NCBI GenBank assembly: GCA_024401305.1
Contig: JAKSLI010000020.1
Location: forward strand, 1 to 50,047
Direction: 5' to 3'
DNA: 50,047 bases
DNA from: Bacteroidaceae bacterium
GTDB taxonomy: Bacteria; Bacteroidota; Bacteroidia; Bacteroidales; Bacteroidaceae
Below, in pieces: positions 4,567 to 39,084 of this stretch; the first letter of the stretch is position 1, and every line of letters begins with the position of its first letter. A program made the position numbers and the translations under genes. The notes beneath the pieces were generated by a model. It was not told where the DNA came from and searched no databases. It saw nothing but the letters and a program-made list of their open reading frames with translations.

Positions 4567-4634
4567 TATGTTATAAATTGGGTAATTATCTATTTACGAG
4601 TCAATTAAAAGTTCCCCCTTCGGGGGTTAGGGGG
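4501..4634 (-). repeat. Junction repeat, copy 1 (stop of one gene and start of the next)
   Basis: Read on the minus strand, this begins with a C5/G5 hairpin that contains the TAA stop of the PL26-like gene. An AACTTTTAAT tail and an AT-rich spacer follow, then ATGCAATCATTTT, an AAACTATTAAACATC block, and a second hairpin of CCCTCCC and GGGAGGG around TTT. The second hairpin encodes PSLWEGLGG of the GH105 signal peptide. The same order recurs at 7747-7913 with a longer spacer. Confidence 0.85.
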
Positions 4635-7600: not shown

Positions 7601-7812
7601 TTATACCATAGCGTCAAACCTTTCGGCGCCCACATCTCCACCTCATCTCCGTTGAAGGAAATGCGAGTGTCAGCGGATTCCGATTCAGGGGTCCAGAGGT
7701 GAGATTGGGCAGAACATGGAAGGACAAAACACAAGAGAAAGAGAAGCCCACCCAAGCCCTCCCAAAGGGAGGGATGTTTAATAGTTTTGGTATTTAGAAA
7801 AAATGATTGCAT
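4627..7812 (-). CDS. YetA/PL26-like exo-rhamnogalacturonan lyase with DUF6250-like N-terminal module
   Basis: Probable exo-acting lyase on the rhamnogalacturonan-I backbone, 1061 residues. After a signal peptide whose n-region is KHPSLWEGLGG, residues about 37-238 form a concanavalin-like module resembling DUF6250 (RVSDLNCFWKASDP). A linker at about 239-272 repeats SKPQN and TTSKPH units. The rest resembles the PcRGLX/YetA architecture: a RIFT-barrel domain from about 281, a beta-sandwich, and a C-terminal alpha/alpha toroid (WYGFWNYGDFMHT, SHWGCGAKEARISQAWWNR, GWFAH-type segments). A second low-complexity stretch of PET/SET units at about 354-378 interrupts the RIFT domain and comes from a 9-nt DNA repeat. 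It lies 93 bp after the PL11 gene and 60 bp before GH105. Family assignment is by overall pattern, and I cannot place the catalytic residues. Confidence 0.8.
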   Translation of the reverse strand: MQSFFLNTKTIKHPSLWEGLGGLLFLLCFVLPCSAQSHLWTPESESADTRISFNGDEVEMWAPKGLTLWYNKPVSGDCTIEYDACAVYEEGNDSEWNRVSDLNCFWKASDPEHPSDILYNKEWRSGIFLNCYSLQLYYLGYGGNYNSTTRFRRYDGNKAAIDEASLRPKILTEYTDSKHLIKPNHWYHIRIECKGSNTRYSIDGECIVDFTDENPLKEGWFGFRTTKSHTKLRRFRVTQPQSPTSKPQNPTSQPQNLTTSKPHSAPVPVASAAGSSLSISGKLIPLHWIGDETPTIATPQTFGVPFAKGEMMPKQLQNAKLSNSTNVAVSPLAYWADGSVKWASVSAVVSPKIPETPETIETPETPETSETLETSETLNSLSLIATLSDGTTLPYTIDSTVVETSNSVRTCTKICGHVGKFPSILRVYTYTGSTQTKLVHTFIYDGDQDKDFIQSLGIQVKVALKDELYNRHVAFLADGKLWSEPVQPLVGRRLLNGATLGDEDKGEAVQRKQMRGERIPPASSFDQKSQQLLKDWASWNRFRLSQLNDMSYTIRKQAKPDCMMVGTFAGKRADGMAFVGDKTNGLIAVMKDFWQSYPSTIEVTDACSETAKLTLWIWSPEAEAMDLRHYDKEGHGLNASYEDIQEGMSTPQGIARTTEIILVPTNGYCGPDSLLAISRQLTSFPQLACTPEYLYEKKAFGEWSLPKYDTPLQCQIENRLDSLLTLYKKNQEDCHWYGFWNYGDFMHTSDPVRNDWLYDVGGFAWDNTELATNLWLWYSFLRTGRKDVWKMAEAMFRHNSEVDVYHCGPHAGLGTRHNVSHWGCGAKEARISQAWWNRFYYYLTGDERAGELMEEVLDADQLLYTLDPMRLAQPREQFPCTAPARLRIGPDWLAYAGNWFAHWERTRDKKYLNKLKAGMKSISDFPNGIFTGPKALGYDPATGVISWEGDPRMMNTNHLLPIMGGFEFVNELEAALSDKNWHQTWLSFCENYRENAQKISKNNFRISRLSAYAFKHTGNQKYLDSALEQMLLNRMTEFKRLSTNDAATWSLDAIYLLNVTP
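6682..6762 (-). repeat. 9-nt coding repeat array in the PL26-like gene
   Basis: About nine imperfect 9-nt units of the GGTTTCAGA/GGTTTCAGG type (plus-strand reading) encode Pro/Ser/Ile-Glu-Thr triplets. Length changes by one unit would keep frame and shift the protein by three residues. Confidence 0.85.
7027..7085 (-). repeat. GGTTTTGAGGTT repeats encoding a linker in the PL26-like gene
   Basis: Imperfect copies of AGGTTTTGAGGTTG (plus-strand reading) encode the SKPQN/SQPQNLTTSKP linker after the DUF6250-like module. The same DNA motif reappears inside the PL11 gene at 9203-9238. Confidence 0.8.
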
Positions 7813-7913
7813 TTTATTATAAATTGTACATTATTCAAGTTTTGCAAGCTCAACTTGAATAATGGCAATAATTAATAGAACTATTAAAAGTTCCCCCTTC
7901 GGTGGTTAGGGGG
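7747..7913 (-). repeat. Junction repeat, copy 2
   Basis: Same layout as 4501-4634. The PL11 gene ends inside the first hairpin (CCCCC TAA CCACC), then AACTTTTAAT, an AT-rich spacer with an extra inverted repeat (7829-7864), ATGCAATCATTTTT, AAACTATTAAACATC and the CCCTCCC/GGGAGGG hairpin coding PSLWEGLGG of the next signal peptide. Confidence 0.85.
7829..7864. repeat. 13-bp perfect inverted repeat in the PL11/PL26 spacer
   Basis: CATTATTCAAGTT at 7829-7841 and its exact complement at 7852-7864 flank a 10-nt loop. The stem is AT-rich and has no clear U-run. It is absent from the otherwise similar junction at 4501-4634, so it looks like an insertion or an mRNA-stability element. Confidence 0.75.
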
Positions 7914-9912
7914 CTAACAGATATCCAAGATGTGGCGGCTGATTGTAGCAAACATTCTGCCAAGCAATAGCCATACGGTAGATGTGATCATGCATGAGAG
8001 TTGGCACACGATGTTCCGTTGGAATTGTGGTAGTATGGATGTAAAGCTTGTCGCAAGTGTCACGGTCATAGAGAATAACTTCCTCACGCCAGTCGCCAAA
8101 GAGGTCGGCAAGGATGTTTGGAGTATTCTTTGTACCGTTGCAAGCGCGGCCTTGGAGTTGAACAAGAGTTTCGAAAGAGATGGTCTTTTCCTTGTCGCCC
8201 GTAATGACTGGCTTATAGACTGTGTTGCCATCGTAAGGCTCATCCTGAAGATCGCCATCCCAATAGATGCGGAAGTTTGTAGGCTTTCTGCTTCCTTGCG
8301 CAAGTTTTCCGAGAATCTTGCCACTCTTTCCGCTGGCAGTATGTATGTTGTTGGTTGCAAGCGACCAGAACTCATAGCCCTTGGAACCGGCAAACATATC
8401 CATGGCAACGCCACGACCATTATCGTCATCTTGCTCAGAATCCTCACGCCAAAGGATCTTTCCTGTTACCGGGTCATGAATCTCGGCACAGTAATTTGCG
8501 TTCTTTCCTTCATGAACCATGAACACTTCAAGTCCTGGGCGTTCTGGAATCAAGTCGCCAAGATGGAGAGCATCGCCATGACCGAGACCTGTAGAAGAAA
8601 GGAGTTTTCCGTTATGGTCGATAGTTGCAGAGCCGTAGATTATCTCATCACAACCATCATTGTCAACATCGCCAACAGCTACAGAGTGAGCACCTTGTCC
8701 AAAAGCGCTATTCTTGCCGTGTTCAAGCGACTGATGAAGCCAACGAAGAGTGATGTTCTTGCCATCGAAGTCGTATGCAGCGAGGTTTGACTGAGTATAA
8801 TAACCACGGCAGAAAACCATACTTGGCTTCTTTCCGTCAAGGTAAGCTACGCAAGCAAGGTAACGCTCCGAGCGGTTGAAATGATTGTCACCCCACCATT
8901 CGATGTCCTTATAAGCTGGCTTATATGGCACGGTTGCAAGCTCCTCACCTGTCTCACCCTTGAATACAGTAAGATATTCAGGACCGCCAATTATCCTACC
9001 GAGCAGAGCACCTTCCTTGCCAACATAATCCGCGTCCTTGTCATCGCCTGGAAGAAGCACAAACTTCCCCTTGCCGTCAACAGTTCCAGGAGCTGTCTTG
9101 CAAGCTATCTCTGCCTTGCCGTCGCCATCAAAGTCGTAAGCAAGAATCTGTGTATAGTGAGCACCAGCACGGATGTTCTTGCCAAGACAGATACGCCAAA
9201 GGAGGTTTTGAGGTTTTGAGGTTGCAAGGTTTTGAGGGTCTGCTGTTGGGAGCTTATAGCAATCAATATAAACCGGATCGGTATAGCCTGTATGAGCATT
9301 GTCATGAGCATTGTGTGGATCCCACTTCAGGATGAGTTCGTAAACACCATCGCCATCAACATCAGCTACAGAGCAATCGCCTGGAGTATATTTGTGGGTG
9401 GCTGGTTGCCATCTTCTTTGACGCTGACCTTGATTCTGACCTTGTCCTTGACCGCCGTTTCTTGGTTCCCTAATGCGAGGACGCTGAGCACCTTGAATGG
9501 TATCAAACTCCGGACGCCTTTCACGAGGAATGAGATTGTCCTCTACAGGAGGTGTGAGGTTCATGGTAAGGTAAGTGTCTGACCAAGGCATGACGGTTTC
9601 GGAAGTTTCCGTTTCCTTGCCTTTGACAACAGTCTTCACCATATATTTTGACTCCACAGAACCGCTTTTGTCTGTGAAGTTACTCACTTTCAACGGAGAT
9701 GAATTGAGCTTCTTTCCGTCACGATAAAGATTAAACTTTACATCAGAATTGTCAGTTCCAAGTACACGCCAACTGATGAACACGCCATTATCTGTCTTCA
9801 CGGCAGTAACACCACGAGTGAGTTTCTCGTATTGCTGGTTTGCATTGAATGTCTGAGCAGAAGCACCCATTGCCGAAGCCGACAAAAGAAGTGCGAGGGT
9901 TAATGCTTTCAT
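7906..9912 (-). CDS. PL11 rhamnogalacturonan lyase
   Basis: Cleaves the alternating rhamnose-galacturonate backbone of RG-I by beta-elimination. The 668 residues match the PL11 (YesW/YesX-like) layout: signal peptide MKALTLALLLSASAMGASA, an N-terminal fibronectin-like region (VFISWRVLGTDN), then an eight-bladed propeller with calcium-type repeats such as VADVDGDGVYELILKWDPHN, YDFDGDGKAEIACKTAPGT and VGDVDNDGCDEIIYGSA, ending in HDHIYRMAIAWQNVCYNQPPH. Two insertions look unusual. Residues about 121-172 carry an Arg/Gln/Gly-rich run (GGQGQGQNQGQRQRR) before the first blade, and a short QNLATSKPQNL stretch comes from the GGTTTTGAGG DNA repeat. The stop codon lies in the junction repeat. The gene follows the BNR_4-type gene by 19 bp. 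Confidence 0.93.
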   Translation of the reverse strand: MKALTLALLLSASAMGASAQTFNANQQYEKLTRGVTAVKTDNGVFISWRVLGTDNSDVKFNLYRDGKKLNSSPLKVSNFTDKSGSVESKYMVKTVVKGKETETSETVMPWSDTYLTMNLTPPVEDNLIPRERRPEFDTIQGAQRPRIREPRNGGQGQGQNQGQRQRRWQPATHKYTPGDCSVADVDGDGVYELILKWDPHNAHDNAHTGYTDPVYIDCYKLPTADPQNLATSKPQNLLWRICLGKNIRAGAHYTQILAYDFDGDGKAEIACKTAPGTVDGKGKFVLLPGDDKDADYVGKEGALLGRIIGGPEYLTVFKGETGEELATVPYKPAYKDIEWWGDNHFNRSERYLACVAYLDGKKPSMVFCRGYYTQSNLAAYDFDGKNITLRWLHQSLEHGKNSAFGQGAHSVAVGDVDNDGCDEIIYGSATIDHNGKLLSSTGLGHGDALHLGDLIPERPGLEVFMVHEGKNANYCAEIHDPVTGKILWREDSEQDDDNGRGVAMDMFAGSKGYEFWSLATNNIHTASGKSGKILGKLAQGSRKPTNFRIYWDGDLQDEPYDGNTVYKPVITGDKEKTISFETLVQLQGRACNGTKNTPNILADLFGDWREEVILYDRDTCDKLYIHTTTIPTEHRVPTLMHDHIYRMAIAWQNVCYNQPPHLGYLLAP
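9203..9238 (-). repeat. GGTTTTGAGGTT repeat inside the PL11 gene
   Basis: Short tandem copies of AGGTTTTGAGGTT (plus-strand reading) encode NLATSKPQNL between two propeller strands just before LLWRICLGKNIRAG. This is the same motif as at 7027-7085 in the neighbouring gene. Confidence 0.8.
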
Positions 9913-22056: not shown

Positions 22057-25000
22057 ATGAATCCAAAATACACTAACATGAGTAGAAATCTTTTCTCTAC
22101 AATTATATTACTGCTAAGCTCTCTTGTCTTTACCACCAAGGTAGCAGCAAAGAACATTTCCACTCTATACTCTCCAAACAAGGCAATATACCTGAACTTT
22201 GACGTTACCGACGGCAAATTGTCAATGGACATTCTCAAGGGAAAAGAAACCGTAGTTTTCAAGAACATTCCTCTTGGCATAAAGACTTCACAAAGAGACT
22301 TCACTCAAGGAATATCACTAATACAAGAAGGCTATCGCTACGCTATTCGCGAAGACTACACTATGCTCACCGGCAAGCGCAAGAACTGCACCAACGAAGC
22401 AAATTGCCGCCCATTGTTCTTCAAGAACAGCAAAGGTGAAGAGTTTGAAATAGAGTGCCGCGCCTACAACGATGGGGTTGCATTGCGCTATAAGGTGAAG
22501 AATCCAAAAGAAGGCGAAAACCTCTCGGACGAAATCACAACATATCATATCAACAATGGTGCTCGCCGATGGATCCAAACCTATCATCCAGACAGTTACG
22601 AGGATTTCTATCCAATGGCAACAAATGGCGAGAAGCAACCTCGTCAAAGAAACGCAGAATGGGGGTATCCGGCACTTGTAGAACCTATCAATGGCACATA
22701 CGCTCTTATCACGGAAGCAAACATCCGTCGTGACAATTGCGGTTCAATCCTTTCCAATAGCACAAACCCAGACGATTACAAAGTAACCCTTGGCGACAAC
22801 GCATCACCGATGAAAGGTTCGGAATGGGTTTCACCATGGCGAGTGGTTATCATGGGAAGCCTTTCTACAATTGTAGAGAGCACCCTTGTAACTGATGTTT
22901 CCGATCCTTGCCAAGAAACAGACACAGAATGGATTAAACCTGGTATCGCATCTTGGATTTATTGGGCATACAATCACGGTTCACAAGATTGCCAGATCAT
23001 CAACAAGTACACAGACCTTGCTGTTGAAATGGGATGGCCTTACACACTTATTGATGCTGAGTGGGATGTAATGAGAAACGGCAATGTGGAAGATGCTGTC
23101 AAATATGCAGTAGGCAAAGGTATAAAACCAATGATTTGGTACAATTCGGATGCAAACTGGACAGGTTCCTCAGCCCCAACTCCACAAGGAAGACTCAAGG
23201 ATCCCGCAAAACGAGAGAAAGAGTTCTCATGGCTTAACAGCATTGGCGTTAAAGGTGTCAAAATAGACTTCTTCAAGAATGACGACACATGGTCGATGAA
23301 CTACTATCTTGACCTTATCGAAGCAACAAGGAAGCACAAACTCAATGTTGTGTTCCATGGATGTACTGTACCTCGCGGATGGCAGCGTACATATCCTCAC
23401 CTCATGACTTACGAAGCTGTTTATGGTGCAGAATGGTATAACAACCGCCCTACCCTAACAGATATGGCTGCTGCCCATAATGCAACACTACCTTTCACGA
23501 GAAATGTAGTTGGTTCCATGGACTACACGCCTGGCACATTCTCCGATTCACAGCACAAGCACATTACCACTCACGGACACGAACTTGCACTCCCATTGCT
23601 CTTTGAATCTGGTATCCAACACATGCCGGACCGTCCTGAGACCTATGCATCCCTGCCAAAAGATGTGCAGGCATTCCTAGCAAACCTTCCCACAACATGG
23701 GACGACACAAAGCTTCTCACTGGCGATGTCGCGAAGGAAGTTGTCATTGCTCGCAAGAGTGCAGACAAATGGTACATAGCAGGTATCAACGGAACCAATG
23801 AGGCGCGTACTATCTCATTCAACCTCAACCGTTTGAAGCTAGCGAGCAACAAGAATGTAATGCTCCGAATCATCGGTGATGGCAAGAGCCAGTATGAGTT
23901 CAATTCCTATAATAAAGAAGTAAAGGATAACGAAACAATCAGCATTGAGACACTACCTCGCGGAGGATTCGTCATTCAAGTTGATCAGGAAAAAGAACCC
24001 GCAAAACTAGCTTTGTGGTACAATCGCCCAGCAAACTATTTTGAGGAAGCTCTCCCTATTGGTAACGGTCGTATCGGTGCCATGGTTTACGGCGGTGCTG
24101 ATTGTGACTCAATTTTCCTTAACGACATCACAATGTGGTCCGGCAAACCATTCGACCGCCAACGCGACGCCGATGCTCACGAATGGCTTCCAGCCGTAAG
24201 AAAGGCTCTTTTCAACGAGGATTACAAGCTTGCTGACAGCCTGCAGCGTCGCATACAAGGTCCTAACTCTGAGTTCTATCGTCCTTTGGCACAGCTTTTT
24301 GTGCGTGACCTCAACAAAGGAAAAGCATCCGACTACCGCCGAGAGCTTGACATAAACCGCAGCATCTGCACAGACAGCTATACCCGTGGCGACAATAAGA
24401 TTACTCGCGAGTATTTCGCATCAAATCCAGACAAGCTCATAGCAATCCATTTCAAGCAGGAAAACTATAATGTTAACCAGCATCTGAACATGTCATTCAA
24501 GATGTCTTCGCTCGTTCCTCATAAGGTTTCATACGAGAAAGATGGCATTATCGTTGACGGTCGCTCGGATGATGACCCTAACAGCATACATTTCCGCACT
24601 CATGTTGTAATGAAGAACACAGGAGGAGAGATTCTGGCAAATGGCGATTCCATCATCGTCAAGGATGCTGACGACCTCATTGTTTATATAATAAATGAAA
24701 CAAATTTCAAGGGTTACAATATTCAGCCAGACGCAAGCAACACTGATTACATTACCACTGCCAACGAACGCAAAAGTCAGTTGAACTTCAACGATTACGC
24801 AAACATCCGTCATCGTCACATTACAGATTACCGCAAATTATTCGACCGATTCCAACTTACTCTTGGCAATGCGGAATACCAAGCTACTATCCCAACAGAC
24901 AAGTTGCTAAGCAACTATGGCAAGAGTAACAATCAGGTTCAAGACCAATACATTGAAACACTCTATACTCAATACGGCAGATACTTGCTTATCTCTTGCT

Positions 25001-26283
25001 CTCGCACTCCAAGTGTACCAGCAAATCTTCAAGGACTTTGGGCTGTTGAGAAGAATCAGCCATGGCGCGGCAACTATACTGTGAACATAAACCTTGAGGA
25101 AAACTATTGGCCAGCAGAAGTTGCAAACATGCCAGAAATGGTTATGCCTCTTGACGGCTTTGTGAAAGCTCTTGCCGACAATGGTGCGACAACAGCAAAG
25201 AACTACTATGGCATAAACAAAGGTTGGTGTTCAAGTCACAATTCCGACATTTGGGCAATGACGAATCCTGTTGGAGAGAAGCATGAAAACCCAGAATGGT
25301 CGAATTGGAATATGGGCGGTGCATGGCTTGTGGAAACTCTTTGGGAACATTATCTTTACAGCATGGACAAGGAGTATCTGCGCAACACGGCTTATCCACT
25401 CATGAAAGGTGCTGCAGAGTTCTGCCTCAACTGGCTCATACCAGACCCTAACAATCCTAAGCAACTCATCACTGCTCCTTCTACATCTCCTGAGAATGAG
25501 TATGTTACGGACAAAGGTTATCATGGTGAAACATGCTATGGCGGAACTGCCGACCTCGCTATCATACGCGAACTTCTCGTTAACACCTCAATGGCTTGCC
25601 AGATTCTTAACGCAGACAAAGCTTTCAAGAACAAGCTTGATGCTGCGTGCAGTAAGCTTCGCCCGTATCAAATCGGCAAGCGCGGCAACCTTCAGGAATG
25701 GTACTACGATTGGGATGACTTTGATTGGCACCACCGCCATCAGTCACACCTCATAGGTCTTTTCCCTGGCAATCATGTCACAAATCCAAGCAAGTTCACA
25801 GCAAAGCAGCCAAACAATCAGGATGCTATCCTAAAGGCTTGCGAGCGAACACTAGAGATCAAGGGTGACGAATCAACTGGTTGGAGCACAGGTTGGCGAA
25901 TAAATCTTTGGGCACGACTGAAGAAAGGCGATACAGCACACCACTATTTACAGAAACTTCTGACCTTCGTTGATCCTTCAAAGAAGCATCACAGCGGAAC
26001 ATATCCAAATCTTTTCGACTCACACAATCCATTCCAGATCGACGGAAACTTCGGTGGAACAGCAGGTGTGTGCGAAATGCTTATGCAGAGTAGCTATACT
26101 CCTGAAAAGGGCGCAGAAATCACTCTTCTGCCGGCTCTTCCGAAAGCATGGAAAAACGGAAGCGTCAAAGGACTGCGTGCTCGTGGCGGTTTCCTTGTTG
26201 ACATAACATGGCGTAACGGTGTTGTTGCCGACTACAAGATTACTCCTACATCATCAGAGACACGCTATAAAGTTGAATTCTAA
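22057..26283 (+). CDS. GH97-GH95 fusion: alpha-galactosidase-like plus alpha-L-fucosidase-like enzyme
   Basis: Secreted two-enzyme fusion of 1408 residues. The signal peptide may start at 22057 or at the ATG at 22078 ([18 protein letters not shown]). Residues about 32-642 are GH97. They carry [11 protein letters not shown] with Asp404 as candidate nucleophile and YEAVYGAEW with Glu459 as candidate acid/base; the spacing of 55 matches the retaining alpha-galactosidase branch rather than SusB. Residues about 650-1405 are a complete GH95: [20 protein letters not shown] opening, Asn1010/Asn1012 in [12 protein letters not shown], Glu1146 in [10 protein letters not shown] and Asp1329 in FQIDGNFGG, all positions used by 1,2-alpha-L-fucosidases. 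GH95 members can also be alpha-L-galactosidases. An MFS sugar permease follows 33 bp downstream. The frame is continuous with no slippery site at the join. Confidence 0.92.
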
Positions 26284-30572: not shown

Positions 30573-32819
30573 ATGAAACGACTTTTATCAGTAATCTACA
30601 TATTAATCTTTTCCTTTATTGTATCATATGCAAATCCGATTACAAACCTGCTTGAGCGCATCGACAAAGGTGCGTCAAAGAAGATTGTTATTGAATTGAA
30701 AAATGTAGAAACTGATTTCTTTGAATTAGACCAGAAAGGAAACAAGCCTGTCATCCGTGGAAATTCATGGGTAAACATCGCAAGCGGTCTCAATTGGTAT
30801 CTCAAATATTATGCAGGTGTTCATCTGTCATGGAACGGAATGAGCGCCCAACTTCCAGAAGTTCTTCCTGCCGTTACAAAGAAGGAACGCCACGAGACGA
30901 ACCTCTCTCTCCGTTACGATTTCAACTACTGCACTTTCAGTTACACAATGGCTTTCTGGGACTGGAACCGTTGGGAACAGGAAATCGACTGGATGGCTCT
31001 TCATGGCATCAACATCCCTTTGGCTGCTGTTGGCGCTGAATGTGTTTGGAAGAACATGCTTACGAAGCTCGGCTATTCCAAGGAAGAAATCAATAATTTC
31101 ATTGCCGGTCCTGCTTTCCTTGCATGGTGGGAAATGAACAATCTCGAAGGTTGGGGCGGTCCTAACCCTGATTCTTGGTACACTCAGCAGGCAGCTCTTC
31201 AGCAGAAAATCCTTAAGCGCATGCGTGAATACGGCATGCACCCTGTTCTTCCGGGCTATAGCGGCATGGTTCCTTCAAACGCAAAGGAGAAACTCGGACT
31301 CAATGTAGAAGGCGATGGCGTTTGGAACGGCTATACACGCCCTGCATTCCTTATGCCAACAGACGCTCGTTACAATGAGATTGCCGACCTATATTACAAG
31401 GAACAGAAAGCACTTTACGGCACTTCTGACTTCTACTCAATGGACCCATTCCACGAAAGTTCTGCCGACAAGGGCGTTGATTTTGACGCAGCGGGCAAGG
31501 CTATCATGGGTGCGATGAAGCGAGTTAACCCGAAAGCCACTTGGGTTATCCAAGGCTGGACAGAGAACCCTCGCGAGGCAATGGTGGAAAGCATGAAGCA
31601 AGGTGATCTCTTAATCCTTGACCTCTTCAGCGAATGCCGCCCGATGTGGGGAATCCCATCCATTTGGAAGCGCGACAACGGTTATATGCAGCATAATTGG
31701 CTCTATTGTATGCTACTGAACTTCGGCGCAAATGTAGGCCTTCACGGTCGTATGGACCAACTTCTTGACAATTTCTATCAGACAAAGGGCAATCCACTTG
31801 CAAAGAACATCAAGGGCATCGGACTTTCTATGGAAGGTTCAGAAAACAATCCTGTAATGTTTGAACTCATGTGCGAACTGCCATGGCGACCTGAGAAGTT
31901 TACGAAGGAAGAGTGGATAAAGGGTTATGTTGCAGCTCGTTATGGCAATAATGGCCATTCGGCAAGTTTGTCAAATGTACAAAATGCATGGAACATCCTC
32001 ATTGATGGCATCTACAACTGTCCGAAAGGCAACAACCAGCAAGGTCCTCACGAGTCAATCTTCTGCTGTCGTCCTAACATGAATAATGTGCAGGCTTCAT
32101 CTTGGAGCAAGATAATGAACTACTACGACCCACGCTCTACAGAAGATGCCGCTCGCGAAATGATCAAGTTTGCCGACCAATTCAAGGGCAACAACAATTA
32201 CGAATACGACCTTGTTGACATCACTCGTCAGGCAGTAGCAGACCGTGCTCGCATTGTTTACCAGCGCATCATGGCTGACTTCAAGACATACGACAAGCGT
32301 CAGTTCAAGAAAGACACAGAGACTTTCCTAAACCTCCTTCTCGTTCAAGACAAGCTTCTCGGCACTCGCAAGGAATTCCGCGTTGGTCGTTGGACAGAAG
32401 ATGCACGTAACCTTGGCAACAACAAGGCAGAGAAAGACCTTTACGAATGGAATGCTCGCGTGCAGATCACCACTTGGGGCAACCGCACTTGTGCCAACAA
32501 AGGCAAGCTCCACGACTACGCTCACAAGGAATGGAATGGTCTGCTTAAGGACTTCTACATGCCACGTTGGCAAGCATTCTTCAAGAGTCTCGAGGATTGC
32601 ATGAACCGCAAGTTTGAACTTCCTCACGGTGGCAATGCCACAACATACGAAGAACTCAAGGCAACGCTCAGCAAGGAACAGCCAAGCGGTCTTCCTGAAG
32701 AGATAGACTTCTACGCAATGGAAGAACCTTGGACACTTCGCACAGCAGAATATTCAGCACAGCCACAAGGCGATCCAATCGAAATCGCGAAGGAAGCCCT
32801 CAAGCTTTTGGAGGAATAA
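30573..32819 (+). CDS. GH89 alpha-N-acetylglucosaminidase
   Basis: Removes terminal alpha-linked GlcNAc, as human NAGLU does in heparan sulfate breakdown and as Clostridium GH89 does on GlcNAc-alpha-1,4-Gal of gastric mucin. The 748 residues follow the family: a small N-terminal domain, then the barrel with FNYCTFSYTMAFWDWNRWEQEIDWMALHGIN and SMDPFHESS (Glu295). Further on are IQGWTENPREA and GIGLSMEGSENNPVMFEL (Glu421). Glu295 and Glu421 are 126 apart, close to the spacing of the NAGLU catalytic pair. A signal peptide, MKRLLSVIYILIFSFIVSYA, directs export. The NagX-like gene follows after 32 bp, and SusC and SusD come next. Confidence 0.94.
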   Translation: MKRLLSVIYILIFSFIVSYANPITNLLERIDKGASKKIVIELKNVETDFFELDQKGNKPVIRGNSWVNIASGLNWYLKYYAGVHLSWNGMSAQLPEVLPAVTKKERHETNLSLRYDFNYCTFSYTMAFWDWNRWEQEIDWMALHGINIPLAAVGAECVWKNMLTKLGYSKEEINNFIAGPAFLAWWEMNNLEGWGGPNPDSWYTQQAALQQKILKRMREYGMHPVLPGYSGMVPSNAKEKLGLNVEGDGVWNGYTRPAFLMPTDARYNEIADLYYKEQKALYGTSDFYSMDPFHESSADKGVDFDAAGKAIMGAMKRVNPKATWVIQGWTENPREAMVESMKQGDLLILDLFSECRPMWGIPSIWKRDNGYMQHNWLYCMLLNFGANVGLHGRMDQLLDNFYQTKGNPLAKNIKGIGLSMEGSENNPVMFELMCELPWRPEKFTKEEWIKGYVAARYGNNGHSASLSNVQNAWNILIDGIYNCPKGNNQQGPHESIFCCRPNMNNVQASSWSKIMNYYDPRSTEDAAREMIKFADQFKGNNNYEYDLVDITRQAVADRARIVYQRIMADFKTYDKRQFKKDTETFLNLLLVQDKLLGTRKEFRVGRWTEDARNLGNNKAEKDLYEWNARVQITTWGNRTCANKGKLHDYAHKEWNGLLKDFYMPRWQAFFKSLEDCMNRKFELPHGGNATTYEELKATLSKEQPSGLPEEIDFYAMEEPWTLRTAEYSAQPQGDPIEIAKEALKLLEE

Positions 32820-32851
32820 ATCATAAAATCGTCAAATCATCAATTCGCCCA

Positions 32852-33925
32852 ATGAAGCGCCTTTTAGCACTCGACATACTCCGCGGCATAACCGTAGCAG
32901 GCATGATTATCGTGAACAACGGCTACGGCGACACATTCGCTCCACTGCTTCACAGCCAGTGGAACGGTTGCACACCATGCGACCTTGTGTTCCCGTTCTT
33001 CCTGTTCATCATGGGTGTTTCGTGCTATCTCTCGCTCAGCAAGACAAACTTCACTGCCACAAAGTCAACGGTAATGAAGATTGCGAAGCGTGCGGTACTG
33101 ATTCTTCTTGTTGGTTGGGCAATACAATGGTGGAACCTCATTTGGAAAGGCGATTGGCTCCCATTCGACCATCTTCGACTCCTTGGCGTACTTCCACGCA
33201 TAGCAATCTGCTATTTCGTGGTTTCGATGATAGCCATTACGGTCAATCACAAATATTTGAAATGGTTTGTCGTTGCATTGCTTGCAATCTACGGAGCGAT
33301 ACTTCTCCTTGGCAACGGCTACGCTAACGACGAAACAAACATACTTGTGATAGCAGACCGTGCAATCTTTGGCGAAGCACATCTCTATACAAAAGCTCCA
33401 GTTGATCCGGAAGGATTCTTAAGCAGCATAAGTGCTATTGCCCATACGCTCATTGGCTTCTTGATTGGTCGTTTGATAAAGGAGACAAAAGATAACGGCG
33501 ATAAAGTCCAGAAACTATTCATTGCGGGTTTCATGCTCTTCGTTACAGGCTATCTGCTAACCTACGGCTTTGAACCAAACAAGCGCATCTGGTCGCCAAG
33601 CTACACGCTGCTTACAACTGGCGGTGCCACAATGCTTCTCTCTACATTAATATATATAATAGACATAAAGAACGGTGGCAAACAGACAAAGTGGACAACA
33701 TTCTTCCATGTCTTTGGCGTAAACCCACTCGCGCTCTATGTCCTTGCCGAAATGCTTGAGAAGCCGATACATGTACTTGGCATAGGCGAAGCTTACAAGA
33801 CTTGCATAGATGTCGTAATGCCTTACAGCTACGGAGCATCCTTGATTTACGCTTTAAGCTACATGCTGCTCATCTTTGGTGTCGGCTATGTGCTTTACAG
33901 AAAGAAAATATTCATAAAGCTTTAG
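32852..33925 (+). CDS. NagX/HGSNAT-like membrane acyltransferase (DUF5009 type)
   Basis: Inner-membrane protein of 357 residues with about ten helices. It begins MKRLLALDILRGITVAGMI, the hallmark start of the heparan-alpha-glucosaminide N-acetyltransferase/YeiB-like family, followed by NGCTPCDLVFPFFLFIMGVS and DHLRLLGVLPRIAICY. Human HGSNAT moves an acetyl group from cytosolic acetyl-CoA to terminal glucosamine across the membrane; bacterial NagX proteins are assigned a similar role on glucosamine. I start at the ATG at 32852; longer in-frame extensions overlap the GH89 gene. Placed next to GH89, it may acetylate GlcN-terminated products so that GH89 can cut them (inference). Confidence 0.85.
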   Translation: MKRLLALDILRGITVAGMIIVNNGYGDTFAPLLHSQWNGCTPCDLVFPFFLFIMGVSCYLSLSKTNFTATKSTVMKIAKRAVLILLVGWAIQWWNLIWKGDWLPFDHLRLLGVLPRIAICYFVVSMIAITVNHKYLKWFVVALLAIYGAILLLGNGYANDETNILVIADRAIFGEAHLYTKAPVDPEGFLSSISAIAHTLIGFLIGRLIKETKDNGDKVQKLFIAGFMLFVTGYLLTYGFEPNKRIWSPSYTLLTTGGATMLLSTLIYIIDIKNGGKQTKWTTFFHVFGVNPLALYVLAEMLEKPIHVLGIGEAYKTCIDVVMPYSYGASLIYALSYMLLIFGVGYVLYRKKIFIKL

Positions 33926-34033: not shown

Positions 34034-37000
34034 ATGAAAAAGCAAAGTTTTTCTACTAGAGTGCGTGCACTCTTCCTTGGCGCTGTTTTGAGTTTGTTCT
34101 GCGTGGCAGCTCAGGCTCAGAATAATGTCACTGGTACTGTTACCGATGAGAACGGTGATCCGCTCATCGGCGTTAGTGTCTTGGAAAAAGGCAGTTCACA
34201 AGGTGTCATCACTGACATCGATGGTAAGTATGCCATCACTGTCAACAAAGGCAAGGCTCTCGTGTTCTCTTACATTGGCTATGACACAAAGGAAGTAGCC
34301 ATTAAGGGCAATGTTGTTAATGTACAGCTCGGTGAAGACATCGCAGCTCTCAATGAAGTTGTAGTCGTAGGTTACGGTTCCATGCGCCGTAAGGACGTTA
34401 CTTCTTCCATCACTACCGTAAAGGCAGACGACCTCAACAAGGGTACTTTCACTGATGCTGGTAGCATGCTTCAGGGTAAGGTTCCTGGTCTCGTAGTTTC
34501 AACTACTGGCGACCCTAACGGCGGCAGCTCACTCACTCTCCGTGGTGCTTCTACTCTCCGTTCTGGCGCTATGTCACCTTACTATGTTGTTGACGGTATT
34601 CCTGGCGTAGATATCTCACTCGTTTCTCCTGACGACATCGAGTCTATCGACGTTCTCCGCGATGCTACTGCAACAGCTATCTACGGTTCAAAGGCAGCCA
34701 ACGGTGTGATCATCGTTACAACAAAGAAGGGTGCTGAAGACCGCGTGAACGTTTCTTACAACGGCTACGCAGCTTTCGACAACATCCTCAAGAAGCTCGA
34801 CATGTGTACTGCTGACGACCTCCGCAACTACGCTAAGTCTAACGGCGTTACTCTCAAGGACGGTGGTGCAAACACTGACTGGCAGGAGGAAGTTCTCCGC
34901 ACAGGTATCAGCCACAACCACAACGTAGGTATCAATGGCGGCAACCAGTCAACTCAGTACATGGTCAGCGCTAACCTCATGAAGCGTCAGGGTGTCATCA
35001 AGATGACAGGTATGGATCGTTTCAATGTTCGTTCGCTCGTTTCTACAAAGGTTCTCAAGGATCACCTCCAGATTTCTGCTGGTATTAACTCTATGTACGG
35101 CAAGCACTTCGGTGTTCCTACAGGCAATGAGGGTGCTTCTGTGCTCGACGCAATGAACTATTTCTCTCCTACAAACCCTATCAAGAATGCTGATGGTACA
35201 TGGTCAACAGGTTCTGGTTCAAAGAACTACAACCCACTTGCCCTCATGTACGAAGATACTTCTAACACTATCTGGAAGCGCAATCAGTTCATCGGCAAGA
35301 CTGCCCTTGAATTCTGCAAGGGTCTCGTTTGGAGCACAAACTACTCTTGGAGCAACTACCAGAGCACATACAGCGCTTACGACACTCGCTACTCACAGCT
35401 CGAAGGTATCGGCAACAAGAACGGTCAGGCTTCTCGCAACACTTACTTCGGCAAGGAGCAGACATTCGAGACTTACGTAAACTGGGATTTCACTCTCGCT
35501 CAAAAGAACAAGATTGGCTTGATGGCTGGTTATTCTTGGGAAGAGAAGCGCAACAATGACGGTTTCGGTATCTCTGTTCAGGAATACTACAACGACGACC
35601 TCAAGTGGAACAACCTCTCTTACGCTTCTACTGTTCTCGGTATCAGTTCTGTTTCTTCAGGTTACATCGAGAATGTTCGCAACATCTCATTCTACGGTCG
35701 TGCAAACTACTCTTTCGACAGCCGCTACATGCTCCAGGCTACTATCCGTCGCGACGGTTCTTCCGTATTCGGTAAGAACAATCGCTGGGGTACATTCCCT
35801 TCAGTTTCTGCTGCTTGGAACATCACAGAGGAAGGTTTCATGAAGAACCAGAGTCTCTTCGACAACTTGAAGCTCCGCGCTGGTTACGGTGTTTCAGGTA
35901 ACGCTATGGGCTTCGATGTTTATTCATCATACGTAACTTACGGTGCTACTGGTATCTTCCAGTACAATGGCGTAAACTATCGCACATACGGTGCTACAAA
36001 GAATGCCAACCCTGACCTCAAGTGGGAGTCAACAGCTATGCTCAACATCGGTCTCGACTTCGCATTCCTCAAGGGTCGCATCAATGGTACTATCGAAGTT
36101 TACAACAAGAAGACTACTGACCTCATCTGGGGTTATCCAGTTTCTACACTCATCTACCCATACTCATGGATGGATGCTAACGTAGGCGAGATGACAAACA
36201 AGGGTATCGAACTCACTTTGAACCTCGTTCCTGTTCGCACTAAGAACTTCCAGTGGCAGTCAACCATCAATCTCTCTCACAACAAGAACACTGTTGACAA
36301 GATGCAGAATGATGTGTTCCACACTACAAACCTCACTCAGGGTGACCCAATGGTATCAGGCGTTTCAGCAAATGGTTACACTCAGTCAATCATCGAAGGC
36401 GAGCCTATCGGTACATTCTTCACTTACGAATGGGCAGGCTTCAAGGACGGACGCTCTGTTTACTACGTTCACGACGCAGCTACTGGCGAGCGCACAGGCG
36501 AAGTAACAAGCAACCCAACTCTCAAGGATCGTACTATCACTGGTTGCGCACAGCCTAAGCTCAACGCAGGTTGGAACAACACATTCAACTACAAGAACTG
36601 GTCTCTCAACGCATTCATCACTGGCGTATTCGGCAATGATGTTTACAACAGCCAGCGTGCTCACTACACATCTGCACAGATGTTCTCTGATGGCAAGAAC
36701 GTTCTCAAGGAATTCCTTGACAACCCTGGCGGCGACGCTTCTGGTTCACTCCCATCAGACCGCTTCATCGAGGATGGTACTTACATTCGTCTCAAGACTC
36801 TCTCTCTCAGCTACACATTCAAGAACTGTTTCAACGATTGGATTCAGGACCTCACTCTCTACGGAACTGCAAACAACGTTCTCACATTCACTAACTACAA
36901 GGGCATCGACCCAGAAGTTAACCTCGGTGGCATCGACCCAGGTGTTGACTACCGTTGGAGCCGTTACCCACACACTCGCACATTCATGGTCGGCGTGAAG

Positions 37001-37405
37001 ATCAACTTCGGTGGCAGCAAGGCCAAGAAGGCAGCTGCTGGCAAGACCCAGTATGTAGAGAAGGTTGTTGAGAAGGTAGTGGAGAAGCCTGTTGTAAAGG
37101 AAGTCGTTAAGGAAGTTGTGAAGAACAGCACTGTTCAGAGCACTTACGTTGTGACATTCCCAGTTTCTTCTTATCAGATTCTCAACACAGCAGAACTCGA
37201 TGGCATCCAGAAGGGTCAGACAGTGGAGGTTGTTGCCTACGCTTCTCCAGAAGGACCGGCAGACCTCAACGCAGCTCTCTCACAGAAGCGTGCTGACGCT
37301 GTTGCCGACTACCTCAAGTCTCGCGGCGTTAACGTAACTCGCGTAGAGGCTAAGGGTGCTGACACAGAGCATGCTAACCGTATCGCTATCGTAACTGTTA
37401 AGTAA
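34034..37405 (+). CDS. SusC/RagA-family TonB-dependent receptor with C-terminal OmpA-like domain
   Basis: Outer-membrane glycan importer of 1123 residues. Order: signal peptide (MKKQSFSTRVRALFLGAVLS, ending about residue 28), carboxypeptidase-regulatory-like domain (NVTGTVTDENGDPLIGVSV), the SusC motif ALNEVVVVGYGSMRRKDVTSSI, plug, and a 22-strand-type barrel. The barrel reaches its normal end at TFMVGVKINF (about residue 993). A normal SusC stops there. This one continues for about 130 residues: a Lys/Ala linker, a Val-Glu-Lys coil (EKVVEKVVEKPVVKEVV), and an OmpA C-terminal-like domain (VEVVAYASPEGPADLNAA, then LSQKRADAVADYLKSRGV). The barrel's C-terminus faces the periplasm, so the extra domain could touch peptidoglycan. 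The frame is continuous. SusD follows after 50 bp. Confidence 0.93.
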   Translation: MKKQSFSTRVRALFLGAVLSLFCVAAQAQNNVTGTVTDENGDPLIGVSVLEKGSSQGVITDIDGKYAITVNKGKALVFSYIGYDTKEVAIKGNVVNVQLGEDIAALNEVVVVGYGSMRRKDVTSSITTVKADDLNKGTFTDAGSMLQGKVPGLVVSTTGDPNGGSSLTLRGASTLRSGAMSPYYVVDGIPGVDISLVSPDDIESIDVLRDATATAIYGSKAANGVIIVTTKKGAEDRVNVSYNGYAAFDNILKKLDMCTADDLRNYAKSNGVTLKDGGANTDWQEEVLRTGISHNHNVGINGGNQSTQYMVSANLMKRQGVIKMTGMDRFNVRSLVSTKVLKDHLQISAGINSMYGKHFGVPTGNEGASVLDAMNYFSPTNPIKNADGTWSTGSGSKNYNPLALMYEDTSNTIWKRNQFIGKTALEFCKGLVWSTNYSWSNYQSTYSAYDTRYSQLEGIGNKNGQASRNTYFGKEQTFETYVNWDFTLAQKNKIGLMAGYSWEEKRNNDGFGISVQEYYNDDLKWNNLSYASTVLGISSVSSGYIENVRNISFYGRANYSFDSRYMLQATIRRDGSSVFGKNNRWGTFPSVSAAWNITEEGFMKNQSLFDNLKLRAGYGVSGNAMGFDVYSSYVTYGATGIFQYNGVNYRTYGATKNANPDLKWESTAMLNIGLDFAFLKGRINGTIEVYNKKTTDLIWGYPVSTLIYPYSWMDANVGEMTNKGIELTLNLVPVRTKNFQWQSTINLSHNKNTVDKMQNDVFHTTNLTQGDPMVSGVSANGYTQSIIEGEPIGTFFTYEWAGFKDGRSVYYVHDAATGERTGEVTSNPTLKDRTITGCAQPKLNAGWNNTFNYKNWSLNAFITGVFGNDVYNSQRAHYTSAQMFSDGKNVLKEFLDNPGGDASGSLPSDRFIEDGTYIRLKTLSLSYTFKNCFNDWIQDLTLYGTANNVLTFTNYKGIDPEVNLGGIDPGVDYRWSRYPHTRTFMVGVKINFGGSKAKKAAAGKTQYVEKVVEKVVEKPVVKEVVKEVVKNSTVQSTYVVTFPVSSYQILNTAELDGIQKGQTVEVVAYASPEGPADLNAALSQKRADAVADYLKSRGVNVTRVEAKGADTEHANRIAIVTVK

Positions 37406-37455: not shown

Positions 37456-39084
37456 ATGAAACTAAATAAATTGTTCATCACAGCCGGACTCTTTGCAGCA
37501 GCATTGACAGGCTGTACAAATTTGGATGTGGACGTTGAGTCTCAGTACACAAAGGATCCAAGCCAGGGCAGCGGTGTTGACCCAATGCTCATCGTTGAGG
37601 CTAAGATGGCTGACGTCTATTATCACCTCCGTGGTTGCCTCGGCCGTCGCTACATGGAAGCTCAGTGCCTTTCATCTGACGAGTTCACAGCTCTCGCTTT
37701 CGATGGCGGTTACTACGACGACGGTACTTACGCTAACCAGGCTCTCCACAACAGCCGTCCTACAGACGCTTCTCTCGACTGGTATGGCGACGTTACTGCC
37801 GGTATCACTAAGGCAAACATCATCCTTGAGGAGCTTGGCCAGAGCGCTTCCGTAGAGATGACAGCTCCTGCTCGTGCCATCCGTGCTTACTATACCTTCA
37901 TCCTTATGGACGGCTTCGGCGACGCTCCTATCATGGACCGCGTGCTCGAGGAAGGTCAGACTTTCGACCGCAAGCCACGCAAGGAAGTTGCTGAGTGGAT
38001 TGACAAGGAACTTTCTGAGATTGCAGACCACCTCACAGAGGATGTTACCCCTAACACTTACGGCAAGCCAACAAAGTGGATGGCTAAGGCTCTTCAGGCT
38101 AAGCTTTACCTCAACTGGGCTGTCTATACTCAGGATAATGTGGAAGATTACGATGCAGCAACTTCTGCCAACCAGAAGCTCGACGACTGTATCAATGTCT
38201 GCGAGGAGATCATCGCAAGCAAGATTTTCGACCTCGGTCCTATGGAGTACCGCTTCAAGTTCGCTCCTGACAATGGTCCTCAGGTGAAGGACTTCATCTA
38301 TGCCATGCCTTACGACGCTATCGACCAGAAGGGCTTCCAGTATGCTCGTCCTCGCACGTTCAAGGACATGAAGAACCTCCTGCCTAACTACTACGGCTCA
38401 ACCGACAAGTTCACTCAGTCTTTCGGTGGCAACATGGTAGTTACTCCTGAAATGGCAGCTCGCTTCGATGCACTTGATGCTTCTGACCAGCGCCGTCTCA
38501 GCGTTCTCGGTGGCGATATCTACAACCGCGACGCAAGCACTCTCCTTCCTACTACAGAGCGTTTCATGTACAAGGATCAGCCTGTTTCTTTCACAAAGGA
38601 CATCAAGCTTGCTAAGCAGGACAACACTATCGACGTAGGCAACAGCCCAGAGAGCTACATGCAGGGCTACCACTCTATCAAGTGGTTCATCGTTCCTAAC
38701 GACTACAACAACGGCCGTGACCAGAGCAACGACCTCCCTATCTTCCGTTATGCTGACGTTCTTCTCATGAAGGCAGAGGCTATGGTTCGTGCAGGACAGA
38801 GCGGTGCTATGGACCTCGTTAACCAGGTTCGCACATACGCAAAGGCTAACCCACTCACATCAGAGCCTACACTTGAGCAGATCTACAACGAGCGTGCAGT
38901 AGAGTTCTTCGACGAGAACTGGCGCCGCAACGACATGATCCGTTTCGGTCACTACGAAGATGAGTTCTTCCCACACTACAAGAACTTCCCAGACGCAAAC
39001 TTCGACAAGCGTCACCGCATCTTCCCAATCACACAGGGCATGCTCGACCTCAACCCAGGTTGGGAGCAGAACCCAGGTTACTAA
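37456..39084 (+). CDS. SusD/RagB-family glycan-binding lipoprotein
   Basis: Surface lipoprotein of 542 residues that caps the SusC barrel and captures oligosaccharides. Signal peptide MKLNKLFITAGLFAAALTGC ends in a lipobox with Cys20. The TPR-rich fold is indicated by RAIRAYYTFILMDGFGDAPIMD near 140-160 and WMAKALQAKLYLNWAVY near 208-224. The C-terminus has the RagB/SusD block PIFRYADVLLMKAEAMVRAG and YNERAVEFFDENWRRNDMIRFG. Pairing with the upstream SusC-OmpA protein is expected. No surface glycan-binding protein, hybrid two-component system or sigma/anti-sigma pair is seen around the locus. Confidence 0.96.
   Translation: MKLNKLFITAGLFAAALTGCTNLDVDVESQYTKDPSQGSGVDPMLIVEAKMADVYYHLRGCLGRRYMEAQCLSSDEFTALAFDGGYYDDGTYANQALHNSRPTDASLDWYGDVTAGITKANIILEELGQSASVEMTAPARAIRAYYTFILMDGFGDAPIMDRVLEEGQTFDRKPRKEVAEWIDKELSEIADHLTEDVTPNTYGKPTKWMAKALQAKLYLNWAVYTQDNVEDYDAATSANQKLDDCINVCEEIIASKIFDLGPMEYRFKFAPDNGPQVKDFIYAMPYDAIDQKGFQYARPRTFKDMKNLLPNYYGSTDKFTQSFGGNMVVTPEMAARFDALDASDQRRLSVLGGDIYNRDASTLLPTTERFMYKDQPVSFTKDIKLAKQDNTIDVGNSPESYMQGYHSIKWFIVPNDYNNGRDQSNDLPIFRYADVLLMKAEAMVRAGQSGAMDLVNQVRTYAKANPLTSEPTLEQIYNERAVEFFDENWRRNDMIRFGHYEDEFFPHYKNFPDANFDKRHRIFPITQGMLDLNPGWEQNPGY

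What the first reader, a model, noticed from the sequence alone, without database searches (positions are those of the whole stretch)
34034..37405. SusC glycan importer fused to an OmpA-like domain
SusC-family barrels end at a final aromatic strand. Here the barrel ends normally (TFMVGVKINF) and the same frame runs on through a VEK-rich coil into an OmpA C-terminal-like domain (ASPEGPADLN, then LSQKRADAV). The barrel's C-terminus faces the periplasm, so the domain could anchor this importer to peptidoglycan or fix its position relative to TonB. The tail looks like that of Prevotella OmpA proteins, which suggests a gene fusion. I do not know of a described SusC of this kind.
Basis: partly seen in the sequence, partly recalled or inferred. 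Interest (0 to 1): 0.72.

Follow-up and report, generated by a model that had tools for sequence, protein, structure and literature searches.

The report
Sugar importer with cell-wall anchor domain
A gut-type Bacteroidota sugar importer (SusC) carries an extra OmpA-like domain, of the sort that grips the cell wall, on its inner end; related importers have gained, swapped or lost such domains repeatedly, which suggests that some importers are tied to the wall.

Summary
Confirmed. ORF 34034-37405 is a complete SusC (TIGR04056, residues 31-992) whose frame continues through a VEK-rich linker into an OmpA domain (PF00691, 36.4 bits, cut-off 27.2). It is no assembly join: two more SusCs of this genome carry the tail on barrels about 30% identical, and 12 relatives of this importer in other genomes have a tail of the same type. 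In 29 sequences read from that importer family the barrel end shows three states: no tail (9), the window's type (13), a second OmpA tail with another coil (7), with at least 8 changes of state on a barrel-only tree. One tail-less gene keeps an in-frame relic. The OmpA domain is under purifying selection, nearly as strong as the barrel. Bacteroidales MAGs carry a third tail type, on up to 7 of about 20 SusCs; Oar-like receptors have OmpA tails too. Best reading: a repeatedly captured periplasmic anchor tying chosen SusCD importers to peptidoglycan. Caveat: the diaminopimelate-binding Asp of classical OmpA is absent here (Ser in its place) and in related stand-alone OmpAs, but present in the two other tail types. 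Wall binding untested; structure prediction unavailable. My literature searches listed no description.

The parts
34034..37405 (+). SusC-OmpA fusion gene, 1123 aa
34034..34117 (+). likely signal peptide (residues 1-28, ending AQA)
   Evidence: read by eye from the sequence; no predictor was run
34127..34366 (+). N-terminal extension, CarbopepD_reg_2
   Evidence: residues 32-111
34349..34375 (+). TonB-box-like stretch LNEVVVVGY (residues 106-114)
   Evidence: sequence; L106, E108, V110, V111, G113, Y114 invariant in A4; identity as TonB box recalled, not tested
34388..34708 (+). plug domain
   Evidence: residues 119-225
34709..37009 (+). SusC barrel; last strand ends TFMVGVKINF at F992
   Evidence: TIGR04056 31-992; solved SusC 8aa4 ends at 992; 8 of 9 tail-less relatives stop here, the ninth 6 residues later
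37010..37126 (+). linker, VEK/VKE-rich, 39 residues
   Evidence: sequence; alignments A1, A3
37127..37402 (+). abridged OmpA-like domain (residues 1032-1123), tail type P
   Evidence: PF00691 over cut-off; dN/dS 0.00-0.26 in 12 relative pairs, types P and C together
37244..37246 (+). Ser1071, at the place of the diaminopimelate-binding Asp of classical OmpA
   Evidence: alignments
37289..37291 (+). Arg1086, the conserved second peptidoglycan-binding residue (LSxxRA)
   Evidence: invariant in A4 and A5
37456..39084 (+). SusD partner lipoprotein gene
   Evidence: PF07980 E 7.7e-32; SusD-like sequence downstream in 27 of 28 relative loci
30573..32819 (+). NAGLU (alpha-N-acetylglucosaminidase), upstream neighbour
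   Evidence: PF05089 E 2.8e-130
32729..33925 (+). HGSNAT/NagX-like membrane protein, upstream neighbour (true start probably an ATG inside the ORF)
   Evidence: PF07786 E 1.9e-7; NF046061 below its cut-off

Best explanation
A working TonB-dependent SusC importer has acquired a periplasmic OmpA-like domain on a charged linker. Because the C-terminus of a SusC barrel faces the periplasm, the domain hangs below the importer and grips the peptidoglycan (directly, or through another wall-bound protein). That would fix the SusCD pair in place in the outer membrane, keep it out of vesicles, hold it against the pull of TonB, and add an outer membrane-wall tether in a phylum reported to lack pal. The tail behaves as a module: different OmpA-like tails were captured at the same barrel end, occur on different SusC families, and can be lost. 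Shown: the fusion, its recurrence, different tails or none at one point of orthologous importers, one in-place decay, and selection on the OmpA domain. Inferred: periplasmic side, wall binding, and each physiological benefit.
For: Domain identity. Same fusion in two further SusCs of this genome; of the 55 loci of the GTDB scan, 15 lie in frames that also align to the SusC barrel, 29 more have the tail but no barrel match, and 11 were not classified. In the window's importer family the barrel end has no tail / tail P / tail C in 9 / 13 / 7 of 29 ingroup sequences, at least 8 changes of state on the barrel tree. L134 reads GGSKKK, stop, AAP, stop, YIDLK, colinear with GGGKKKAAAPRYIDREVIK of its sister L137. 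OmpA domain dN/dS 0.00-0.26, barrel 0.05-0.17 in 12 pairs. The aligned tails of types B (6) and C (8) keep both peptidoglycan residues and match solved OmpA-type domains. Bacteroides BT_0418, with a peptidoglycan-binding domain, is retained in the outer membrane and not in vesicles (passage of PMC6222051). No pal detected in Bacteroidetes (section 10 of PMC12204202).
Against: The DAP-binding Asp is missing (Ser) in all 19 type-P SusC tails examined and in the 33 of 35 related stand-alone OmpAs that my motif could score, and the domain is shortened (PF00691 positions 28-81 of 98). Relatives with 75-80% identical barrels have no tail, so import presumably does not need it. The OmpA domain's dN/dS is above the barrel's in 7 of 12 pairs. 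No structure was obtained and no binding was tested. SusC of the B. thetaiotaomicron starch system already stays mostly in the outer membrane, so a tail is not needed for that.
Confidence: 0.55

Rival explanations
1. The OmpA-like fold is used for something other than wall binding: pairing of SusC units, docking of TonB or a periplasmic enzyme. The loss of the Asp in type P marks this change of use.
For: Ser instead of the DAP-binding Asp in all 19 type-P SusC tails examined; abridged domain; OmpA dimerisation through the C-terminus is mentioned for some bacteria (passage of PMC6572160).
Against: The aligned tails of types B and C, also attached to SusC barrel ends, keep Asp and Arg; the common property of different OmpA captures is most simply wall binding. 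Stand-alone OmpAs of the same subfamily also have Ser, so the change is not special to the fusion.
Confidence: 0.27
2. The tail is a passenger: neutral in-frame fusions with a neighbouring or recombined ompA end, tolerated because the barrel C-terminus is free.
For: Tail-less relatives exist at 75-80% barrel identity; one tail decayed in place (L134); the OmpA domain is somewhat less constrained than the barrel in 7 of 12 pairs.
Against: Clear purifying selection on the OmpA domain (dN/dS at most 0.26); at least 8 changes, with two different OmpA types at the same point; no other kind of domain was seen there in the 29 sequences read.
Confidence: 0.13
3. Assembly join or frameshift artefact of one MAG.
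For: The genome is a 115-contig assembly.
Against: Same architecture in other assemblies with 73-78% identical barrels and twice more in the own genome; DNA identity of 82-86% to relatives L050 and L056 in the 50-base bins from 36951 to 37100, with no break at the join.
Confidence: 0.01

Closest known systems
SusC/RagA TonB-dependent importers (TIGR04056; PDB 8aa4, 5t3r and others)
   Same: N-terminal extension, plug, barrel, SusD partner
   Different: the closest solved relative ends at the last barrel strand; this one goes on for 131 residues into an OmpA domain
Bacteroidota OmpA / porin F type proteins (e.g. BT_0418, F. johnsoniae OmpA; passages)
   Same: barrel, coil and OmpA domain; stand-alone OmpAs of Prevotella relatives carry the same tail subfamily
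   Different: 8-strand barrel, about 350-440 aa, no plug or TonB box
OmpM of Veillonella (PMC10628300, abstract and outline)
   Same: works alike in principle: one protein is nutrient channel and wall tether
   Different: trimeric porin with another periplasmic stalk, not a TonB-dependent receptor; homology was not tested here
PorE (NF052230) and Pal
   Same: OmpA-like wall-binding domain as outer membrane tether (section 10 of PMC12204202)
   Different: lipoproteins without a transport barrel

Membership tests
SusC/RagA importers | TIGR04056 full-length match over its cut-off | tested here: met
   779.6 bits against 368.25, residues 31-992
SusC/RagA importers | SusC signature TIGR04057 | tested here: met
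   62 bits against 46.2
SusC/RagA importers | SusD gene next door | tested here: met
   37456-39084, PF07980 and PF14322
SusC/RagA importers | protein ends at the final barrel strand (usual, not in the model) | tested here: not met
   131 residues follow F992; this makes it a variant, since relatives with and without the tail intermix on the tree
SusC/RagA importers | TonB-dependent glycan import | not testable with these tools
   needs uptake assays
OmpA-like domain PF00691 | score over the gathering cut-off | tested here: met
   36.4 bits against 27.2 on the tail
OmpA-like domain PF00691 | full-length domain | tested here: not met
   profile positions 28-81 of 98; first helix region and last loop have gaps against types B in A5
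OmpA-like domain PF00691 | DAP-binding Asp | tested here: not met
   Ser1071 in the window; ASPEG or SSPEG in all 19 type-P SusC tails
OmpA-like domain PF00691 | DAP-binding Arg in LSxxRA | tested here: met
   Arg1086, invariant in A5
OmpA-like domain PF00691 | OmpA fold | not tested
OmpA-like domain PF00691 | binding to peptidoglycan | not testable with these tools
   needs a sacculus pull-down
OmpA porins (8-strand barrel) | 8-strand OmpA barrel at the N-terminus | tested here: not met
   N-terminal part is SusC

The most novel reading that the evidence does not exclude
Bacteroidales use OmpA-like tails as interchangeable anchor modules on TonB-dependent importers: three or more tail types, captured more than once and shared among SusC and Oar-like receptors, decide which importers are pinned to the wall, so that glycan import and outer membrane-wall tethering are carried by the same protein and can be switched on and off in evolution.
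Probability: 0.45. Interest if true: 0.8.

Novelty: new variant of a known kind. Interest (0 to 1): 0.64.

Why it matters
How the outer membrane is tied to the wall in Bacteroidota is unsettled (no pal detected; PorE proposed: section 10 of PMC12204202), and what sorts SusCD importers between membrane and vesicles is open (passages of PMC6222051). Closely related importers that differ naturally in having no tail, tail P or tail C form a ready experiment for both questions.

Tried and rejected

Within-genome homogenisation of tails as a general rule: rejected. Among pairs with barrels under 40% identical, tails are no more alike within than between genomes (type B 62.0 against 59.8, 562 of 5000 label shuffles as high; type P 63.2 against 62.8, 2276 of 5000). 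Only for the three tails of this genome does a tree show a clade of their own (99/97). The AU test against one clade of the 11 tails on the window's importer type is only marginal (p 0.037).

An old single fusion with slow tails and fast barrels: disfavoured for type P, because between the window and its 10 close relatives tails change about as fast as barrels (barrel 73-77%, tail 66-72%), whereas SusCs of one genome with barrels mostly near 20-30% share tails of 45-89%. Some type-B pairs (L119/L121: barrel 50, tail 88) do not fit that calibration, so for type B an old fusion stays possible.

Ruminant association: many record titles of the SusC-OmpA loci name ruminants or RUG genomes, but so do those of many ordinary OmpA hits; not tested.

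Literature: searches are weak because 'susc' also matched 'susceptible'. (29 papers with SusC and OmpA as whole words) was judged from titles and abstract starts; passages were seen in two of them (PMC12611786; PMC6434023) and contain no such fusion.
Full report
OBSERVATION. The frame 34034-37405 is open for 1123 codons. The first 992 residues are a complete SusC: N-terminal extension, plug, barrel, with TIGR04056 at 779.6 bits over 31-992 and the SusC signature. A SusD gene follows at 37456-39084. After the last barrel strand (TFMVGVKINF, F992) come 39 linker residues (with VEKVVEKVVEKPVVKEVVKEVVK) and 92 residues that match PF00691 (E 6.8e-9 for the tail alone, 36.4 bits, cut-off 27.2) over profile positions 28-81 of 98. 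The best solved SusC relative ends at our residue 992 (8aa4_A).

NOT AN ARTEFACT. A PF00691 search of the own genome (3.2 Mb, 115 contigs, 86% complete) gave 13 matches, three of them in SusC-sized frames: the window, C27 and C31. Both others are uninterrupted SusC genes followed by genes that look SusD-like by eye. The three barrels are 30-31% identical, the tails 68-81%. A scan of GTDB species genomes with the tail alignment returned 55 loci. BLASTP recovered the tail in 44 of them; 15 of these 44 lie in frames that also align to the window's SusC barrel, the other 11 of 55 were not classified. Of the 15, seven are close relatives of the window gene (barrels 73-78%), two are other SusCs of Prevotellaceae MAGs (L051, L057), and six come from MAGs titled Bacteroidales and have a different tail.

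THREE TAIL TYPES. Type P (the window): short OmpA domain with YASPEG and LSQxRADAVA, about 130-140 residues with linker. Type B: full OmpA domain (GYADSATG, LSQQRA, SPESNRVAVCIVK) after the same sort of VEK linker (PF00691 5.2e-18 in L074). Type C: a coil (DNAEIDRLNGEINRLRAEN) and a full OmpA domain (GYADKQTG), PF00691 1e-11. Profile comparison links P with B over 114 columns including the linker (E 6e-22, probability 99.4) but P with C only weakly (E 3e-5, probability 73). So C looks like a separate capture, and whether P and B share one origin is open. Type C and type B match solved OmpA domains well, best a 'Major outer membrane protein' domain, 9uu2 (E 3e-25; E 5e-21).

HOW COMMON. Type P at E <= 1e-29: 3 of 399 family genomes, own one included, two genera (at most 10 candidates per genome were scored). 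In 100 genus genomes the rows listed for alignment A1 show SusC frames with the tail in 4 genomes, the own one included (the list was cut; a 1272-aa frame in G062 proved to be another receptor, see below). Type C at E <= 1e-30: 24 of 200 genus genomes, 30 matches, 28 in frames of 1164 aa or more, the others 482 and 186 aa; in an order sample, 4 of 324 genomes match, all in frames of 400-443 aa, that is ordinary OmpA size. Type B: no SusC-sized frame in 393 order genomes (the one match was 390 aa) and no match in 326 phylum genomes; neither search has a known positive genome in it. Where type B occurs it is frequent: by my hand count of the distinct over-cut-off SusC frames, tailed SusCs are 7 of 19 in G109, 7 of 20 in G110, 5 of 31 in G112 (one of them, L124, with a divergent OmpA-like end) and 3 of 33 in G108 (where not all SusC candidates were scored); type P is 4 of 24 in G102 and 3 of 16 in the own genome. 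G102 and G108-G113 were reached because they had a tail, so these figures are no frequency estimate.

GAIN, SWAP AND LOSS AT ONE POINT. A search of 200 genus genomes with the window's barrel found matches in 52 (E <= 1e-150). I chose and fetched 20 loci, with a view to different frame lengths; three (L138-L140) agree in contig length and tail sequence with L056, L053 and L054 and were dropped. Together with loci that had been found by their tails this gave 29 sequences of the family and one outgroup, so the shares below are not frequencies. The C-ends are of three kinds: they stop at the last strand (8) or six residues later (1), carry a type-P tail (13, the window included), or carry tail C (7). 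Further family members, mostly with frames near 1000 aa, were not read. On a tree of the barrels alone the three states need at least 8 changes; C alone needs 3, and starred branches force at least 6 for 'none' and 4 for P. L128 (type P) has a long branch and an unsure place. Parsimony does not tell gain from loss. SusD-like sequence lies downstream in 27 of the 28 other loci (25 residues only in L105, at a contig end; none in L052, which ends there). In L134 the frame ends GGSKKK, and the bases after the stop read AAP, stop, YIDLK, colinear with GGGKKKAAAPRYIDREVIK of its sister L137: an eroded tail, so at least this tail-less state is a loss.

THE TAIL IS UNDER SELECTION AND IS A MODULE. In 12 pairs of relatives (some sequences used more than once) the OmpA domain has dN/dS 0.00-0.26 and the barrel 0.05-0.17; the domain's value is higher in 7 pairs, equal in 1, lower in 4 (several dS values exceed 1 and are rough). 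SusCs of one genome have barrels of 18-50% and tails of 45-89% identity. Between the window and its close relatives tails change about as fast as barrels, so similar tails on unrelated barrels suggest that tails moved. The window's tail groups with the two other tails of its own genome (99/97) although its barrel sits with its relatives in other genomes (100/100). This is not general. In the tail tree 19 type-P SusC tails lie apart from 35 stand-alone OmpAs of the same subfamily, except that L127 and L128 fall on the OmpA side, so L128 may be a second capture. The 35 were taken from 36 loci with a length and motif filter, which dropped only L062 (151 aa).

OTHER RECEPTORS. L107, L132 and L133 (about 1270-1300 aa) are not SusCs: L107 has PF25183 (OMP_b-brl_4), CarboxypepD_reg and an OmpA domain, and L132 matches TIGR04056 only in its first 150 residues; L133 resembles L132 in sequence. 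I call them Oar-like from recall of that architecture. Of 20 further type-C loci fetched, 11 were classified by BLAST: four Oar-like (L154, L155, L157, L160), one fragment of the window's SusC type (L156), six other SusCs (L158, L159, L161, L162, L163, L166); 9 were not recovered by my motif filter and stay unclassified.

MECHANISM. The importer looks complete (likely signal peptide, extension, TonB-box-like stretch, plug, barrel, SusD). In known SusC structures the barrel's C-terminus is periplasmic (established knowledge, not tested here), so the tail should lie between outer membrane and wall. OmpA-like domains of A. baumannii bind diaminopimelate through D271 and R286 (passages of PMC6572160). 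The aligned tails of types B and C keep both residues. Type P has Ser1071 and Arg1086; all 19 type-P SusC tails and the 33 of 35 related stand-alone OmpAs that the motif could score have Ser. Hence wall binding is likely for B and C and open for P. In Bacteroides an OmpA-type protein with such a domain stays in the outer membrane and out of vesicles, SusC of the starch system is mostly retained without help, and other SusC-like proteins were found in both fractions. The most likely gain is a fixed, wall-tied importer; holding the receptor against TonB's pull is my inference.

CONTEXT. Upstream lie NAGLU, a HGSNAT/NagX-like protein, a histidine phosphatase, a ROK kinase, an MFS transporter, a GH97-GH95 protein and a C11 peptidase, which suggests a host-type or fucosylated glycan. 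NAGLU and NagX were not found beside the relatives in the stretches held (5.4-6.5 kb upstream in L104-L106, about 3 kb in most GTDB loci, under 1 kb in most others); a histidine phosphatase relative (34-46%) lies near four of them. The substrate of the SusCD pair is not settled.

VERDICT. It is a new variant of SusC, not a new kind of system. No paper describing it turned up in the listings, and one search found none; they search one open-access library only.

Noticed in passing
22057-26283: One 1408-aa frame holds GH97 (N, catalytic and C parts) followed by GH95 (N-terminal, catalytic and C parts): two glycosidases fused.
   Followed up: no
30573-33925: NAGLU next to a HGSNAT/NagX-like membrane acetyltransferase, like two consecutive lysosomal heparan sulfate enzymes (recalled), upstream of the SusC-OmpA gene.
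   Followed up: partly
L107 2415-6218; L132 2252-6040; L133: Oar-like TonB receptors of about 1270-1300 aa end in a coil and an OmpA domain; L132 and L133 have the same type-C tail as some SusCs.
   Followed up: partly
L134, just after the SusC stop: In-frame relic of a type-P linker with stops and the OmpA domain gone: a tail lost in place.
   Followed up: yes
L124: SusC of 1277 aa with an alanine/glutamate-rich coil and a divergent OmpA-like end, perhaps a fourth capture.
   Followed up: no
L016 1277-5256: Three tandem ompA-like genes of 400-409 aa in the own genome, all with GYASIEG where classical OmpA has the TD motif.
   Followed up: no
4627-7812 (minus strand): DUF6250 fused to a PcRGLX-type protein, beside a family 11 rhamnogalacturonan lyase (7906-9912) and a GH88 (3136-4566): a pectin cluster.
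   Followed up: no
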